NCBI GenBank assembly: GCA_031263835.1
Contig: JAISEZ010000032.1
Location: forward strand, 1 to 10,277
DNA length: 10,277 nt
Reading direction: 5' to 3'
DNA from: Tannerella sp.
GTDB taxonomy: Bacteria > Bacteroidota > Bacteroidia > Bacteroidales > Tannerellaceae
In this document: positions 3,584-6,833 of the stretch, piece by piece
Layout: each line of letters opens with the position of its first letter
Position numbering within the stretch: the first letter of the stretch is position 1
Notes under the pieces: generated by a model
Told to the model about the DNA's origin: nothing
The model's database searches: none
What the model saw: only the letters and a program-made list of their open reading frames with translations
Translations under genes and position numbers: made by a program

Positions 3584-5077
3584 TTAGTTCTGTTCCTTGA
3601 GGATGACGTCGTGCGCGCCGCCCTCGACAATGCTGGTGGACGATACCAGCGTGATTTTGGCATGTTGCTGAAGAGCCTTGAGGGTGATGGCGCCGCAGCT
3701 GCACATGGTCGCCCTGATTTTCCCCAGCGTAATGGCCAGGTTATCCTTCATTTTTCCGGCATAGGGGACATAGCTGTCCACGCCTTCCTCAAACTTCAGC
3801 GACTCCGTTCCGCCCATGTCGTAGCGCTGCCAGTTCTGGGCGCGGTTTGACCCTTCGCCCCAGTATTCCTTCACATAATTGTTGCCGATGCGCAGCGTTT
3901 TGGTAGGCGACTCGTCGAAGCGGGCGAAATAGCGTCCCATCATCAGGAAATCCGCTCCCATGGCCAGCGCCAGCACCATGTGGCAGTCGTGCACCAGACC
4001 GCCGTCGCTGCAAATGGGGATGTAGATACCCGTCCGGCGATAGTGTTCATCGCGTGCCTGAACCACGTCAATCAGGGCTGTTGCCTGTCCGCGGCCGATG
4101 CCTTTCTGTTCGCGCGTGATGCAGATGGAACCGCCTCCGATGCCGACTTTGATAAAGTCCGCGCCGGCGGCAACCAGGTAACGGAAACCGTCGCTGTCGA
4201 CCACATTTCCGGCGCCCACCGGCACGCTGTCGCCATACGTGCGCTTAATCCACTGCAACGTTTCCTGCTGCCATTCGGAATAGCCGTCGGAGGAATCGAT
4301 GCACAGCACGTCCACGCCGGCCTCCACCAGCGCCGGCACCCGCTCGCGATAGTCGCGCGTATTGATGCCCGCCCCGACAATCAGCTGCTTGGTTTCGTCG
4401 GACAGCTCGTCGGGATTGTCGCGATGGCTGTCATAATCTTTCCGGAAGACAAAATAAACCAGATTCTGGTCTCTGTCGATAATCGGCAACGTGTTCAGTT
4501 TATGCTCCCAGAGGGTTTGATTGGCTTCGCTGAGCGAAATGCCCGACGGCCCGACTATCAGCTTGGAAAAGGGCGTCATAAAGTCCCTGACCTTCATGTC
4601 CATCGGGTCTTTTTCCGTCCGGTAGTCGCGGCTGGTGACCAGTCCCAGCAATTTCCCGTTACAGGTGCCGTCGTGGGTCACGCCGATGGTCGAATGTCCC
4701 GTCTTTTTCACCGTCCGGAGGACATCGGCCAGCGTATCTTCGGGCGTCAGGTTCGAGTCGCTGATTACAAACCCGGCCTTGAATTTCTTTACCCTGCGCA
4801 CCATGCCGGCCTGAGCGGCGACGGGCTGCGAACCGAAAATGAACGACAGTCCGCCGTTGTGCGCCAGTTCGATAGCCAGCTCGGGGCCGGAAACGGACTG
4901 CATGATGGCCGACACAAAGGGGATATTCAGCATGATAGCCGGTTTTTTATTTTTCGCATGTTTCACTAAGGGCGTTTTCAACGAAACGTTGGAAGGGATA
5001 CATTTTTTGGTCGTCAGACCGGGGACTAACAGATATTCCCCGAAAGTTCTGGATACATCGTCTAAATAAACTGCCAT
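3584..5077 (-). CDS. guaB: IMP dehydrogenase
   Basis: Oxidises IMP to XMP with NAD+, the committed step of guanine nucleotide synthesis in the cytoplasm. The 497 residues show the TIM barrel interrupted by a CBS-domain region at about 105-225. The catalytic loop [12 protein letters not shown] has Cys319. The NAD/IMP barrel motifs GAGNVV (288-293) and CSDGG (356-360) are present. The mobile flap holds the Arg418-Tyr419 dyad (NWQRYD) and [12 protein letters not shown], which supports IMPDH over GMP reductase. The start [20 protein letters not shown] and the residue numbers of Cys, Arg and Tyr match the Tritrichomonas foetus-type enzyme as remembered, not the common bacterial form. A -7-like box lies about 28 bp upstream. 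It is the first gene of a two-gene unit with the ABC-F ATPase. Confidence 0.95.
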
Positions 5078-5104
5078 ACGTCAACTGTTTTACGGAATAC
5101 GGCG

Positions 5105-5112
5105 CAAAGATA
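5105..5112 (-). promoter_or_regulatory. Promoter -7 box of guaB
   Basis: The minus strand reads TATCTTTG followed by C, an exact match to the Bacteroidetes TAnnTTTGC box, 27 bp before the guaB ATG. No good TTTG -33 element is present 19-21 bp upstream, so the call rests on the -7 box and the position. Confidence 0.55.
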
Positions 5113-5178
5113 GGCATTTTTGCCGGAAACGCTGAATCCCGCAGAGGGAAAATAGCCCCCCCCTGCCAACTGTTTTTT

Positions 5179-5480
5179 ATGCGAATCAGTAGTTATACTT
5201 CACACGGCATGGATATAAAATTCAAAGATTCAATCATTCAAAGATTCAAGGGTTTCCGGTGGAAATGACTGTTGGGTCAATGCACAAAACCATGCCGCGT
5301 GCAGTATAGTAGTCAGTAGGGGCGAAACGCTTTCGCCCGCAGGGCAGCCGGCGGGAAAGCCGCATATCTCCCACACAGAGATACGGTATCAGGCGCTGCA
5401 TCTGCCGGGGCCATTTGATTTTGTATATGAACCGATGTATCCATTCTACTAACTACTATCTACTAACTACTGATTCGCAT
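5179..5480. repeat. 184-bp repeat, copy 2, interrupted by a 115-bp insertion
   Basis: This copy has the same ends, orientation and interior as 1508-1691, but is split after its first 15 bp by the element at 5194-5308. Removing the insertion and one 5-bp duplication leaves 182 bp. The 2-bp difference is explained by a 3-bp deletion near 5370 and a 1-bp insertion near 5440. Its outer ends lie between tta triplets (5177-5179 area and 5480-5482), a possible target duplication that copy 1 lacks. Confidence 0.8.
5194..5308. mobile_element. 115-bp MITE-like insertion with 5-bp target duplication
   Basis: The ends are 19-bp imperfect inverted repeats (5194-5212 and 5290-5308, 17 of 19 matching), starting tatact and ending agtata. 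The sequence gtagt occurs immediately on both sides (5189-5193 and 5309-5313). The uninterrupted sequence at 1508-1530 shows the likely empty site. Inside, 5220-5251 is an 8-bp tandem repeat of four units (attcaaag, attcaatc, attcaaag, attcaagg). It encodes no protein, so any movement would need a transposase supplied from elsewhere. Confidence 0.75.
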
Positions 5481-5488
5481 TAACTATA

Positions 5489-5821
5489 AAAAAAGACGGA
5501 AGATGAAATTTTTCGGGAAAGACGAAAAAACACGCACGTGAATGAAAAATCCACGCACGTGGTTGGAATGACCACGCACGTGGATGAAATAAACACGCGC
5601 GTGGATAAAAAAAACACGCACGTGAATGAAAAATCCACGCGCGTGGTTGGAATGATCACGCACGTGGTTGAAATAAACACGTGCGTGGATAAAAAAAACA
5701 CGCACGTGAATAAAAAAAACACGCGCGTAGTTGGAATGACCACGCGCGTGGTTGAAATAAACACGTGCGTGGATAAAAAAAACACGCACGTGTTTTTCGG
5801 CCTCCGGCACCCGTCTTTTTT
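5489..5821. other. 333-bp inverted-repeat-bounded element carrying a palindrome array
   Basis: aaaaaagacgg at 5489-5499 is matched exactly by ccgtctttttt at 5811-5821. A second inner pair, cgaaaaaacacg before the first palindrome and cgtgtttttcg after the last, is also inverted. Between them lies the 13-unit array. The paired ends suggest that the array and its flanks form one unit that folds or moves as a whole. No target duplication was seen and no gene is encoded convincingly. Confidence 0.55.
5531..5792. repeat. Array of 13 palindromic 10-mers at exactly 21-bp period
   Basis: Thirteen copies of CACG-YR-CGTG start at 5531, 5552, 5573, 5594, 5615, 5636, 5657, 5678, 5699, 5720, 5741, 5762 and 5783. 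The centre is CA in seven, CG in four and TG in two; unit 10 ends in CGTA. The 11-bp spacers recur in the order aatgaaaaatc, gttggaatgac, gwtgaaataaa, gataaaaaaaa, which gives an 84-bp higher-order repeat present three times plus a final 10-mer. It is not CRISPR: the units are too short and the spacers are related to one another. Because 21 is a multiple of 3, several frames stay open across it, encoding 7-residue repeats such as VDKKNTH. No ribosome-binding site or family match supports a protein. Confidence 0.92.
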
Positions 5822-5834
5822 GTGCTCAAAATTA

Positions 5835-5900
5835 GATTCAAGGGTTTCCGGCGGGAATGACTGTTGGGTCAATGCACAAAACCATGCTGCGTGCAGTATA
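5835..5900. repeat. Partial second copy of the MITE-like element (right half)
   Basis: These 66 bp match 5243-5308 at 63 positions without gaps and end in the same gtgcagtata. The left inverted repeat is absent; weaker similarity runs back only to about 5826. The palindrome element therefore lies between two direct copies of this sequence. Confidence 0.85.
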
Positions 5901-5952
5901 ATTTGACGGAAGAGGTAATACCCCTCCCCACAAGGGATGGGTGGGTTGGTTC

Positions 5953-5990
5953 AAAAAAAGCCCGCCTGAACAGTTGTCGGCGGGCTTTTT
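5953..5990 (-). terminator. Intrinsic terminator of the rplM-tsf operon
   Basis: The stem gcccgcc (5960-5966) pairs with ggcgggc (5979-5985) over a 12-base loop. On the minus strand it is followed by seven T residues, 19 bp past the tsf stop. Five T residues follow on the plus strand, so it may act in both directions. Confidence 0.92.
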
Positions 5991-6008
5991 CAGAAATGGA
6001 GTGTGTGT

Positions 6009-6833
6009 TTATTCCAGATTCAACGTTACACGCTTAAACGAAATCGTTGTAAGCGCTTTATCCTGTTGCTGCAAGTATTGTTCGATCGTAAGTTTCGAAT
6101 CCTTCACAAAGTCTTGCTGCAATAACGTGCTCTCCTTATAGAATTTCTGCAATGCGCCTTCTGCGATACGTTCGAGCAGGTTCTCCGGTTTACCGCTCTG
6201 ACGCGCTTTGTCGCGTGCAATTTCCTTTTCGGTGTCGATCACCTTCTGCGACACTTCGGCCGGCGTCACGGCTACCGGATTCATGGCGGCCACCTGCATG
6301 GCTACGTCGCGCGCCACCTGATAGTCAAGCGTCCGGTTAAAGGCAACGACCGTCGCCAGTTTATTCCCCGGATGGATGTACGATATCGTGGAAACGCCTG
6401 TCACATACTCAAAGAAACCCACTTCCATCTTTTCGCCCGTGATGCCAATCCGGTCAACCACATGATTTTCGACGGAACGGCCATCGCTCAGCGGCGCGGC
6501 CAGCAAGTCGGCCAGCGTAGCCGGTTTTTGCGACATGGCGGCATCCAGAATGGTTTTCGTCAATGCGATAAAGTCGGCATTTTTTGCTACGAAATCGGTT
6601 TCACACTTTAATGCGACAATTGCCGCAAATTCTCCGTCATGCGCGGCCAGTACGCATCCTTCGGACGCTTCGCGATCCGAACGCTTTGCGGCCACTGCCT
6701 GACCTTTTTTGCGGATGATTTCCATTGCTTTCTCGAAATCGTTCGCTGCTTCTTCCAGCGCTTTCTTGCAATCCATCATTCCCGCCCCGCTCATTTTACG
6801 CAAATGAGCTATCTCAGCCATTGTAACTGCCAT
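6009..6833 (-). CDS. tsf: Translation elongation factor Ts
   Basis: Nucleotide exchange factor that releases GDP from EF-Tu in the cytoplasm. The 274-residue length is normal. The N-terminal UBA-like module carries the family signature LRKMSGAGMMDCKKAL (11-26), and the core has the EF-Tu-contacting TDFVAKN motif (79-85). The C-terminal part ends in a helical segment with LTIEQYLQQQ. The ATG is preceded by an A/G-rich stretch (aaagaaagagat) in place of a strong Shine-Dalgarno sequence. It is the last gene of the operon, 27 bp after rpsB, and a terminator follows directly. Confidence 0.98.
   Translation of the reverse strand: MAVTMAEIAHLRKMSGAGMMDCKKALEEAANDFEKAMEIIRKKGQAVAAKRSDREASEGCVLAAHDGEFAAIVALKCETDFVAKNADFIALTKTILDAAMSQKPATLADLLAAPLSDGRSVENHVVDRIGITGEKMEVGFFEYVTGVSTISYIHPGNKLATVVAFNRTLDYQVARDVAMQVAAMNPVAVTPAEVSQKVIDTEKEIARDKARQSGKPENLLERIAEGALQKFYKESTLLQQDFVKDSKLTIEQYLQQQDKALTTISFKRVTLNLE

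What the first reader, a model, noticed from the sequence alone, without database searches (positions are those of the whole stretch)
5531..5792. Thirteen near-identical palindromes on an exact 21-bp lattice
CACG-YR-CGTG recurs 13 times with no deviation in start-to-start distance. Twenty-one bp is two helical turns, so every site faces the same side of the DNA. Strict spacing with varying spacers suggests selection on geometry: a binding platform for a dimeric protein, a nucleoid or partition-type site, or a replication/recombination element. The array lies between two housekeeping operons with no obvious owner gene.
Basis: partly seen in the sequence, partly recalled or inferred. Interest (0 to 1): 0.82.

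Follow-up and report, generated by a model that had tools for sequence, protein, structure and literature searches.

The report
Palindromic minisatellite in a mobile-element cassette
A row of thirteen near-identical 21-base, nearly palindromic repeats between two housekeeping genes is a tandem-repeat array that most likely sits inside a small transposon-like element; sampled relatives carry many such arrays whose repeat length clusters near 21 or 42 bases whatever the sequence, which points to an unexplained length rule rather than to a binding site for one protein.

Summary
The array is real: thirteen 10-bp sites start exactly 21 bp apart at 5531-5792 (12 exact CACGYRCGTG, one CACGCGCGTA). 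The spacers form an 84-bp higher-order repeat (94% matches), so it grew by blocks. A second 13-unit copy with the same leader and tail lies on another contig. In sister species G103 homologous leaders and tails flank 1-18 units of two related palindromes (14 of 17 leaders readable), in elements with terminal inverted repeats; 4 of 8 complete copies carry 9-12 bp target-site duplications. So the cassette is MITE-like, nearest in kind to BrickBuilt of Porphyromonas gingivalis. None of 29 other tsf loci shows a 21-bp array (23 with a full 1.5 kb downstream). A protein-specific platform is unlikely: unit sequences differ between species and copies. Unit length recurs: in sampled congeners 111 of 124 distinct repeat families (12-60 bp) are 20-23 or 40-44 bp long, none 26-32. 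Sampling was partly biased, and a small control leans the same way (7 of 11). Cause unknown. Verdict: new variant of a known kind, plus an interesting, unexplained length lock.

The parts
5531..5792 (.). minisatellite: 13 units of 21 bp (10-bp site CACGYRCGTG + 11-bp spacer), in an 84-bp four-unit higher-order repeat
5486..5530 (+). leader of the cassette; core TTCGGGAAAGACGAAAAA at 5512-5529 is shared with the second copy (C253) and, diverged, with 17 leaders in G103
5793..5821 (+). tail of the cassette, shared with the C253 copy (92.6% over 27 bases)
5489..5499 (+). putative left terminal inverted repeat AAAAAAGACGG
   Evidence: read; exact complement of 5811-5821; no target-site duplication recognised
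5811..5821 (-). putative right terminal inverted repeat (CCGTCTTTTTT on +)
   Evidence: read
5194..5308 (.). separate dispersed repeat R2, ~115 bp with ~19-bp imperfect inverted ends (TATACTTCACACGGCATGG ... CCATGCCGCGTGCAGTATA); 92-97% identical copies elsewhere in the genome
   Evidence: query 120-219; ends read
5306..5483 (.). separate dispersed repeat R1, ~180 bp, more than 30 copies in this genome
   Evidence: query 217-394
5834..5900 (.). partial second copy of R2 on the other side of the array
   Evidence: 95.5% over 67 bases

Best explanation
The array is an intergenic minisatellite carried by a small non-autonomous, MITE-like cassette (about 5489-5821: leader, 13 x 21 bp, tail, 11-bp inverted ends). 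SHOWN in the sister species G103: cassettes with a homologous leader and tail have inverted terminal repeats, half of the complete ones have target-site duplications, and the unit number behind one leader varies from 1 to 18. SHOWN in this genome: two copies at two places, each with 13 units in the same four-phase order. INFERRED: a transposase acting in trans moved the cassette into this already repeat-rich intergenic gap; unit number and the 84-bp blocks arise by slipped-strand replication or unequal recombination; the dyads help, because each unit can pair with a neighbour as a hairpin. INFERRED: the 21-bp step is a property of the process or structure that makes and keeps such arrays in this group (units of about two or four helical turns, whatever the sequence), not of a protein reading CACGYRCGTG. 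Any effect on tsf or the IMP dehydrogenase gene would be secondary; for instance the minus strand of the array carries four terminator-like hairpins with T-tracts.
For: Second copy with same leader, tail and 13 units. 19 leader hits in G103, 17 exact, against 1 control hit; of the 17, 14 could be read through: 13, 13, 13, 4, 2, 2, 2, 1 and 1 units mostly of CACG type and 12, 12, 18, 8, 4 of CTCAC type; 3 end at a contig edge. Terminal repeat ATGTATATCGGATATGATACC (up to 2 mismatches) at 42 places in G103, control 0; 8 copies with both ends (up to 5 mismatches), 4 of 8 with 9-12 bp duplications, allowing an offset of up to 2 bases, each p<=0.002 against shuffles. Block structure 84 bp. No array at other tsf loci and no IMP dehydrogenase gene beside them. 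Census: 111 of 124 distinct unit families at 20-23 or 40-44 bp, uniform expectation 22.8. Cassette as RNA: z -12.7 and -14.6.
Against: For the window copy itself the mobile-element case is by homology: only two copies, short inverted ends, no target-site duplication seen, no empty site and no transposase identified. The terminal repeat of G103 is absent from G000 (0 hits at up to 2 mismatches), and two of the 17 G103 leaders (L045, L178) have other outer sequence. 4 of 8 complete copies show no duplication. All three long CACG-type arrays in G103 and both in G000 have exactly 13 units despite different internal blocks (84 bp by TRF; 63 and 42 bp read by eye), which pure drift in copy number does not predict; shorter CACG-type arrays also exist, so I read this as coincidence or descent, but it is not settled.
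Confidence: 0.7

Rival explanations
1. Binding platform: thirteen operators on one face of the helix for a dimeric DNA-binding protein (nucleoid, partition or regulator).
For: Exact 21-bp spacing, near-palindromic sites, A-tract spacers that would add phased bend. Inner pair (4,7) of the palindrome keeps base-pairing through double changes: 105 of 128 units (14 arrays of G000 and G103) against 66.1 after shuffling, reached by 0 of 2000; 29 of 36 distinct cores against 19.6, reached by 2 of 2000. Pair (2,9): 82 of 128 against 62.8, 0 of 2000.
Against: Site sequence changes between species and even between copies behind one leader; among distinct cores pair (2,9) shows no such signal (364 of 2000 shuffles) and the centre pair pairs no better than chance (78 of 128 against 85.9); arrays of 1-2 units exist; exact pairs in only 5 of 123 family genomes and 1 of 393 order genomes, the own one; no array at 29 other tsf loci.
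Confidence: 0.1
2. Minus-strand transcription terminator or insulator: hairpins formed by neighbouring units followed by T-tracts stop read-through between tsf and the IMP dehydrogenase gene.
For: 4 terminator-like sites, all on the minus strand of the array, against 1.5 expected in window 4900-6100; strong fold.
Against: tsf has its own terminator-like stem just downstream (about 5953-5990, by eye; not listed); most G103 units (TTTGAAACAAA spacers) lack a long T-tract; intergenic arrays of the census lie in tandem/divergent/convergent gaps (49/22/14) much as background gaps do (207/74/77).
Confidence: 0.08
3. Coding array: an ORF of heptapeptide repeats (..NEKSTHVVGMTTHV..).
For: 21 is 7 codons, so frames stay open on both strands.
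Against: No Pfam match for the two array ORFs scanned; the distance from leader to array differs by one base even between the two copies in this genome (7 bases after GGGAAAGAC in the window, 8 in C253), so no frame is shared from the leader; sampled relatives have 20, 22, 23, 41 and 43-bp unit families, which are not multiples of three. No protein homology search was run.
Confidence: 0.03
4. Z-DNA lattice: every exact core here alternates purine and pyrimidine, so supercoiling could flip units to Z-DNA.
For: CACGYRCGTG and GTGCRYGCAC alternate strictly.
Against: The CTCACGTGAG and CGGAGYTAACTCCG arrays of the same kind do not alternate.
Confidence: 0.03

Closest known systems
BrickBuilt (P. 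gingivalis), minisatellite inside a MITE, PMC4596501
   Same: Tandem ~2-turn units (23 nt) with no extra spacer, leader and tail segments, short inverted ends, intergenic, several copies per genome, variable unit number, strong predicted stem-loops. Read: abstract and outline, sections 5, 8, 9, 10 and part 1 of 2 of section 7.
   Different: Different terminal repeats and unit length. In G103 one cassette type hosts different palindromic units at the same period. BrickBuilt duplications are 2-5 nt; in G103 they are 9-12 bp. Leader and tail were not aligned with BrickBuilt's.
MITE464/PgRS and the 22/23/41-nt tandem repeats of P. gingivalis (as told in PMC4596501)
   Same: 41-nt units match the 41-42-bp class that dominates the G080 sample.
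   Different: No sequence comparison was made here.
Tandem repeats of archaeal Borg elements, PMC9879509
   Same: Many independently arisen arrays in one genome, intergenic and genic; some units of 20-21 nt. Seen: search listing and passages only.
   Different: Borg units are described as perfect and A-enriched; units of 18 and 36 nt are also named; no lock at 20-23/40-44 is described in the passages seen.
REP/BIME-type palindromic repeats (recalled)
   Same: Intergenic palindromes, hairpin-forming, tandem in places.
   Different: No REP motif or REP-associated transposase was tested.

Membership tests
MITE carrying a minisatellite (kind) | terminal inverted repeats | tested here: met
   G103: 8 copies with both ends within 5 mismatches. 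Window copy: perfect 11-bp inverted ends read, suggestive only.
MITE carrying a minisatellite (kind) | target-site duplication | tested here: inconclusive
   G103: 4 of 8 complete copies, 9-12 bp; 4 of 8 none. Window and C253 copies: none seen by eye.
MITE carrying a minisatellite (kind) | dispersed copies with the same leader and tail | tested here: met
   2 in G000, 17 exact leaders in G103, tails in 14 of 17.
MITE carrying a minisatellite (kind) | too short to encode a transposase | tested here: met
   Complete G103 copies are 165-479 bp; window cassette about 333 bp.
MITE carrying a minisatellite (kind) | cognate autonomous transposon with the same ends | not tested
   No transposase search was run.
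BrickBuilt family | terminal repeat GAGACCTTTGCA-like (IS5 type) | tested here: not met
   Table 2 compared by eye with AAAAAAGACGG (window) and ATGTATATCGGATATGATACC (G103).
BrickBuilt family | 23-nt unit | tested here: not met
   21 bp.
CRISPR array | unique spacers between repeats | tested here: not met
   Spacers recur every 84 bp, 94% matches.
Partition or replication-origin site | single locus conserved among relatives | tested here: not met
   Two copies in the genome; no 21-bp array at 29 other tsf loci, 23 with a full 1.5 kb downstream.
Partition or replication-origin site | partition or replication gene next to the site | tested here: inconclusive
   None among the five genes of the window scanned with Pfam; other window ORFs and the neighbours of C253 were not scanned.

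The most novel reading that the evidence does not exclude
Bacteria of this group possess a process with a built-in ~21-bp ruler that creates tandem arrays de novo from arbitrary seeds, so that unit lengths are locked to two or four, and not three, helical turns, with dyads favoured; mobile cassettes merely carry some of these arrays. Arrays with unlike units behind shared flanks and the empty 26-32 bp range are what such a process would leave.
Probability: 0.25. Interest if true: 0.8.

Novelty: new variant of a known kind. Interest (0 to 1): 0.5.

Why it matters
The single array is ordinary for its group, but the group may not be ordinary: in the four larger samples tandem arrays reach 9-21 per 100 kb, and their unit lengths fall mostly at 20-23 and 40-44 bp across more than a hundred distinct unit families. 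A unit length that does not depend on sequence would be a direct clue to how minisatellites are born or kept (slippage on one helical face, hairpin size, small circles, an enzyme with a fixed step), a long-open question that these genomes would make testable. It also warns against reading an even lattice of palindromes as a protein binding platform.

Tried and rejected
Constant copy number: five arrays in two species all have 13 units, which looked like selection on length; reading all readable leaders in G103 gave 1 to 18 units, so it is not a rule. Z-DNA alternation: true of two palindromes, false of two others. Conserved tsf-IMP dehydrogenase neighbourhood: the second gene is absent from all 29 other tsf loci fetched, but 6 of these loci are cut by a contig end before 1.5 kb downstream, 3 of them within 260 bases. 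Rfam: no match in the window at the gathering score. Viral contigs: 4 stretches with two sites each, not pursued. Arrays in Trueperaceae, two Phycisphaerae-type MAGs and Streptomyces (4 of the 14 stretches) look like independent tandem repeats and were set aside. Simple helical phasing as the whole cause: three-turn units (31-32 bp) are missing in the genus sample, so it does not suffice. Spacer inversion: exact inverse spacer pairs occur in L019, near-exact ones for one spacer type in L015, none in L014 or L016 (L016 was read on a strict 21-bp grid although its units slip to 22, so that null is weak); interesting but not general.

Limits of the census: G080 was sampled evenly; 19 of 20 contigs of G000 came from the list of dispersed-repeat hits, all 20 of G103 from contigs already known from leader or terminal-repeat hits, and 4 of 20 of G104 likewise, so their densities may be too high. 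Added small samples G078, G106, G111 gave 0 arrays, G079 gave 2, and 29 tsf loci (103 kb) gave none. 21 of 176 arrays with a period outside 12-60 bp were left out of the family count. Controls are small (16 arrays in 382 kb from other families and other genera; 7 of 11 unit families also lie in the bands; R at 10.5 bp 0.69, reached by 63 of 20,000 null draws), so the lock may be wider than the genus.

Full report
OBSERVATION. The window (contig C47 of the 2.05-Mb, 331-contig assembly G000, 63% complete) has thirteen sites at 5531-5792, each 21 bp from the next; 12 match CACGYRCGTG exactly and the one at 5720 has one mismatch. Of the 12, only 3 are perfect palindromes; 9 have CA or TG at the centre. 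Chance does not give this (0.047 exact sites per random window). Tandem Repeats Finder sees a 21-bp period (12.8 copies, 76%) and an 84-bp one with a higher score (3.2 copies, 94%): spacers cycle as AATGAAAAATC, GTTGGAATGAC, GWTGAAATAAA, GATAAAAAAAA, with some departures. So the array grew by blocks of four units.

SURROUNDINGS. The gap of 931 bases lies between tsf (EF-Ts, 6009-6833, minus) and an IMP dehydrogenase gene (3584-5077, minus), Pfam. In 29 other genomes of the genus whose tsf locus was returned (of 39 others with a match), none shows the IMP dehydrogenase gene on the locus and none a 21-bp array (L070 and L080 show 45- and 41-bp periodicity by that looser test, and keeps neither). 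Six of the 29 are cut by a contig end before 1.5 kb downstream. The gap in the window is full of dispersed repeats: R2 (5194-5308), R1 (5306-5483, more than 30 copies) and a piece of R2 (5834-5900).

SECOND COPY. C253:118-458 matches the cassette at 88%: same leader, 13 units in the same four-phase order, same tail. In the window the cassette ends carry an exact 11-bp inverted repeat (5489-5499, 5811-5821).

RELATIVES. Exact pairs of sites occur in 5 of 123 family genomes including the own and in 1 of 393 genomes drawn from the order, the own. A scan of GTDB genomes found three sites in a row in 14 stretches, 10 of them in Bacteroidales MAGs labelled Tannerella, Prevotellaceae and Odoribacteraceae; their isolate codes look like termite-gut samples (recalled, not checked). 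Through the control column, G018 of the same family turned out to have 49 pairs of a different palindrome, GTGCRYGCAC, at the same 21-bp spacing, on 7 contigs.

THE CASSETTE IN G103. With one mismatch allowed the leader motif hits 97 of 123 family genomes, mostly one to a few times and about as often as its control; G033 has 16 hits and G105 10, which on the listed letters are other sequences in the main and were not pursued beyond. G103 has 19 hits, 17 exact, against 1 control. Of the 17, 14 could be read: arrays of 13, 13, 13, 4, 2, 2, 2, 1 and 1 units, mostly of CACG type (the shortest are mixed), and CTCACGTGAG-type arrays of 12, 12, 18, 8 and 4 units, all at 21 bp; three ran into a contig end. 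The outer ends are terminal inverted repeats ATGTATATCGGATATGATACC (42 places, control 0); two of the leaders, L045 and L178, have other outer sequence. Eight copies have both ends; four of eight show duplications of 12, 9, 10 and 9 bp, four show none. The same terminal repeat also lies beside arrays of a third palindrome, CGGAGYTAACTCCG (L197, L206, L208), found as 21-bp pairs in G103 alone of 41 genomes (17 hits, control 0). The CACG and CTCAC units share the spacer TTTGAAACAAA and differ at palindrome positions 2, 4, 7 and 9. Over 128 units of 14 arrays, pair (4,7) keeps pairing more than shuffles do, among all units and among 36 distinct cores; pair (2,9) does so among all units but not among distinct cores; the centre does not. 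So dyad symmetry is kept only in part.

LENGTH LOCK. In sampled stretches, tandem arrays (period 9 or more, at least 2.5 copies) number 24 in 277,759 b (G104), 85 in 400,000 b (G080), 21 in 139,513 b (G000), 44 in 399,900 b (G103), 2 in four added samples of 76,461 b (both in G079), and 0 in 29 tsf loci of 103,073 b. 155 of these 176 have a base period of 12-60 bp and group into 124 unit families by similarity; 111 are at 20-23 or 40-44 bp (uniform expectation 22.8), with 38 at 21, 25 at 41, 23 at 42 and none at 26-32. Rayleigh R at 10.5 bp is 0.73 (largest of 20,000 null draws 0.33), but G000 alone is not significant (1815 of 20,000) and the best-fitting repeat over all is 10.05. Controls: 16 arrays in 381,895 b, 11 families, 7 in the bands, so the pattern may not be peculiar to the genus. 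67 of 124 families are multiples of three and 57 are not, so a coding rule does not explain the lock. Of 136 banded arrays in the four larger samples, 56 have a dyad beyond shuffles at p<=0.05 (2 of 7, 3 of 4, 0 of 13, 26 of 53, 11 of 30, 3 of 6, 7 of 17, 4 of 6), 102 lie outside the ORFs of a crude caller and 34 inside, and 52 share flanking sequence with another array of the same genome (12 of 36, 7 of 23, 26 of 66, 7 of 11), in several groups with unlike units, some through neighbouring arrays or dispersed repeats.

MECHANISM. Most likely a MITE-like cassette carrying a minisatellite. Past transposition is supported for the homologous cassette of G103 and inferred here. Growth by slippage or unequal exchange is inferred from the block structure. 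The 21-bp step is shared by unlike units; its cause is not known. As RNA, both strands of the cassette fold far better than shuffles (z -12.7, -14.6), a simple result of the palindromes; four terminator-like sites lie on the minus strand of the array.

KNOWN. Nearest in kind is BrickBuilt, a 23-nt minisatellite in a P. gingivalis MITE (PMC4596501; sections named under Closest known systems); the MITE review PMC10969869 and the resequencing paper PMC5771137 were seen as passages, the Borg paper PMC9879509 as listing and passages. Paper searches listed no paper whose title or abstract start describes this array or the length lock; two searches showed 10 and 12 of 25 hits each, the listed papers were not opened except those named, and the library holds only open-licence papers.

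Noticed in passing
window 5306-5483, 1517-1694 and more than 30 other places in G000: R1, a ~180-bp dispersed repeat ending in TCTACTAACTACTA repeats, often with a short inverted piece at its other end; looks like an unnamed MITE family.
   Followed up: partly
window 5194-5308 and 5834-5900; C253, C254, C71, C98, C278, C46 of G000: R2, a ~115-bp repeat with ~19-bp imperfect inverted ends at 92-97% identity, possibly a recently active MITE.
   Followed up: no
L019 4711-4951 with flanks: 12-unit array of CACGTACGTG sites (11 exact) whose spacers occur in both orientations (several exact inverse pairs), inside 184-bp inverted flanks at 87.5% identity: segments seem to have flipped between palindromes.
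   Followed up: partly
G080 (one-contig genome), sampled stretches L235-L254: 85 tandem arrays in 400 kb, mostly with 41-42 bp units; by extrapolation several hundred per genome.
   Followed up: partly
L199, L203, L204, L210 (G103): Single copies of the terminal repeat ATGTATATCGGATATGATACC lie upstream of what look like gene starts, without a partner within 1.2 kb; remnants or a regulatory use.
   Followed up: no
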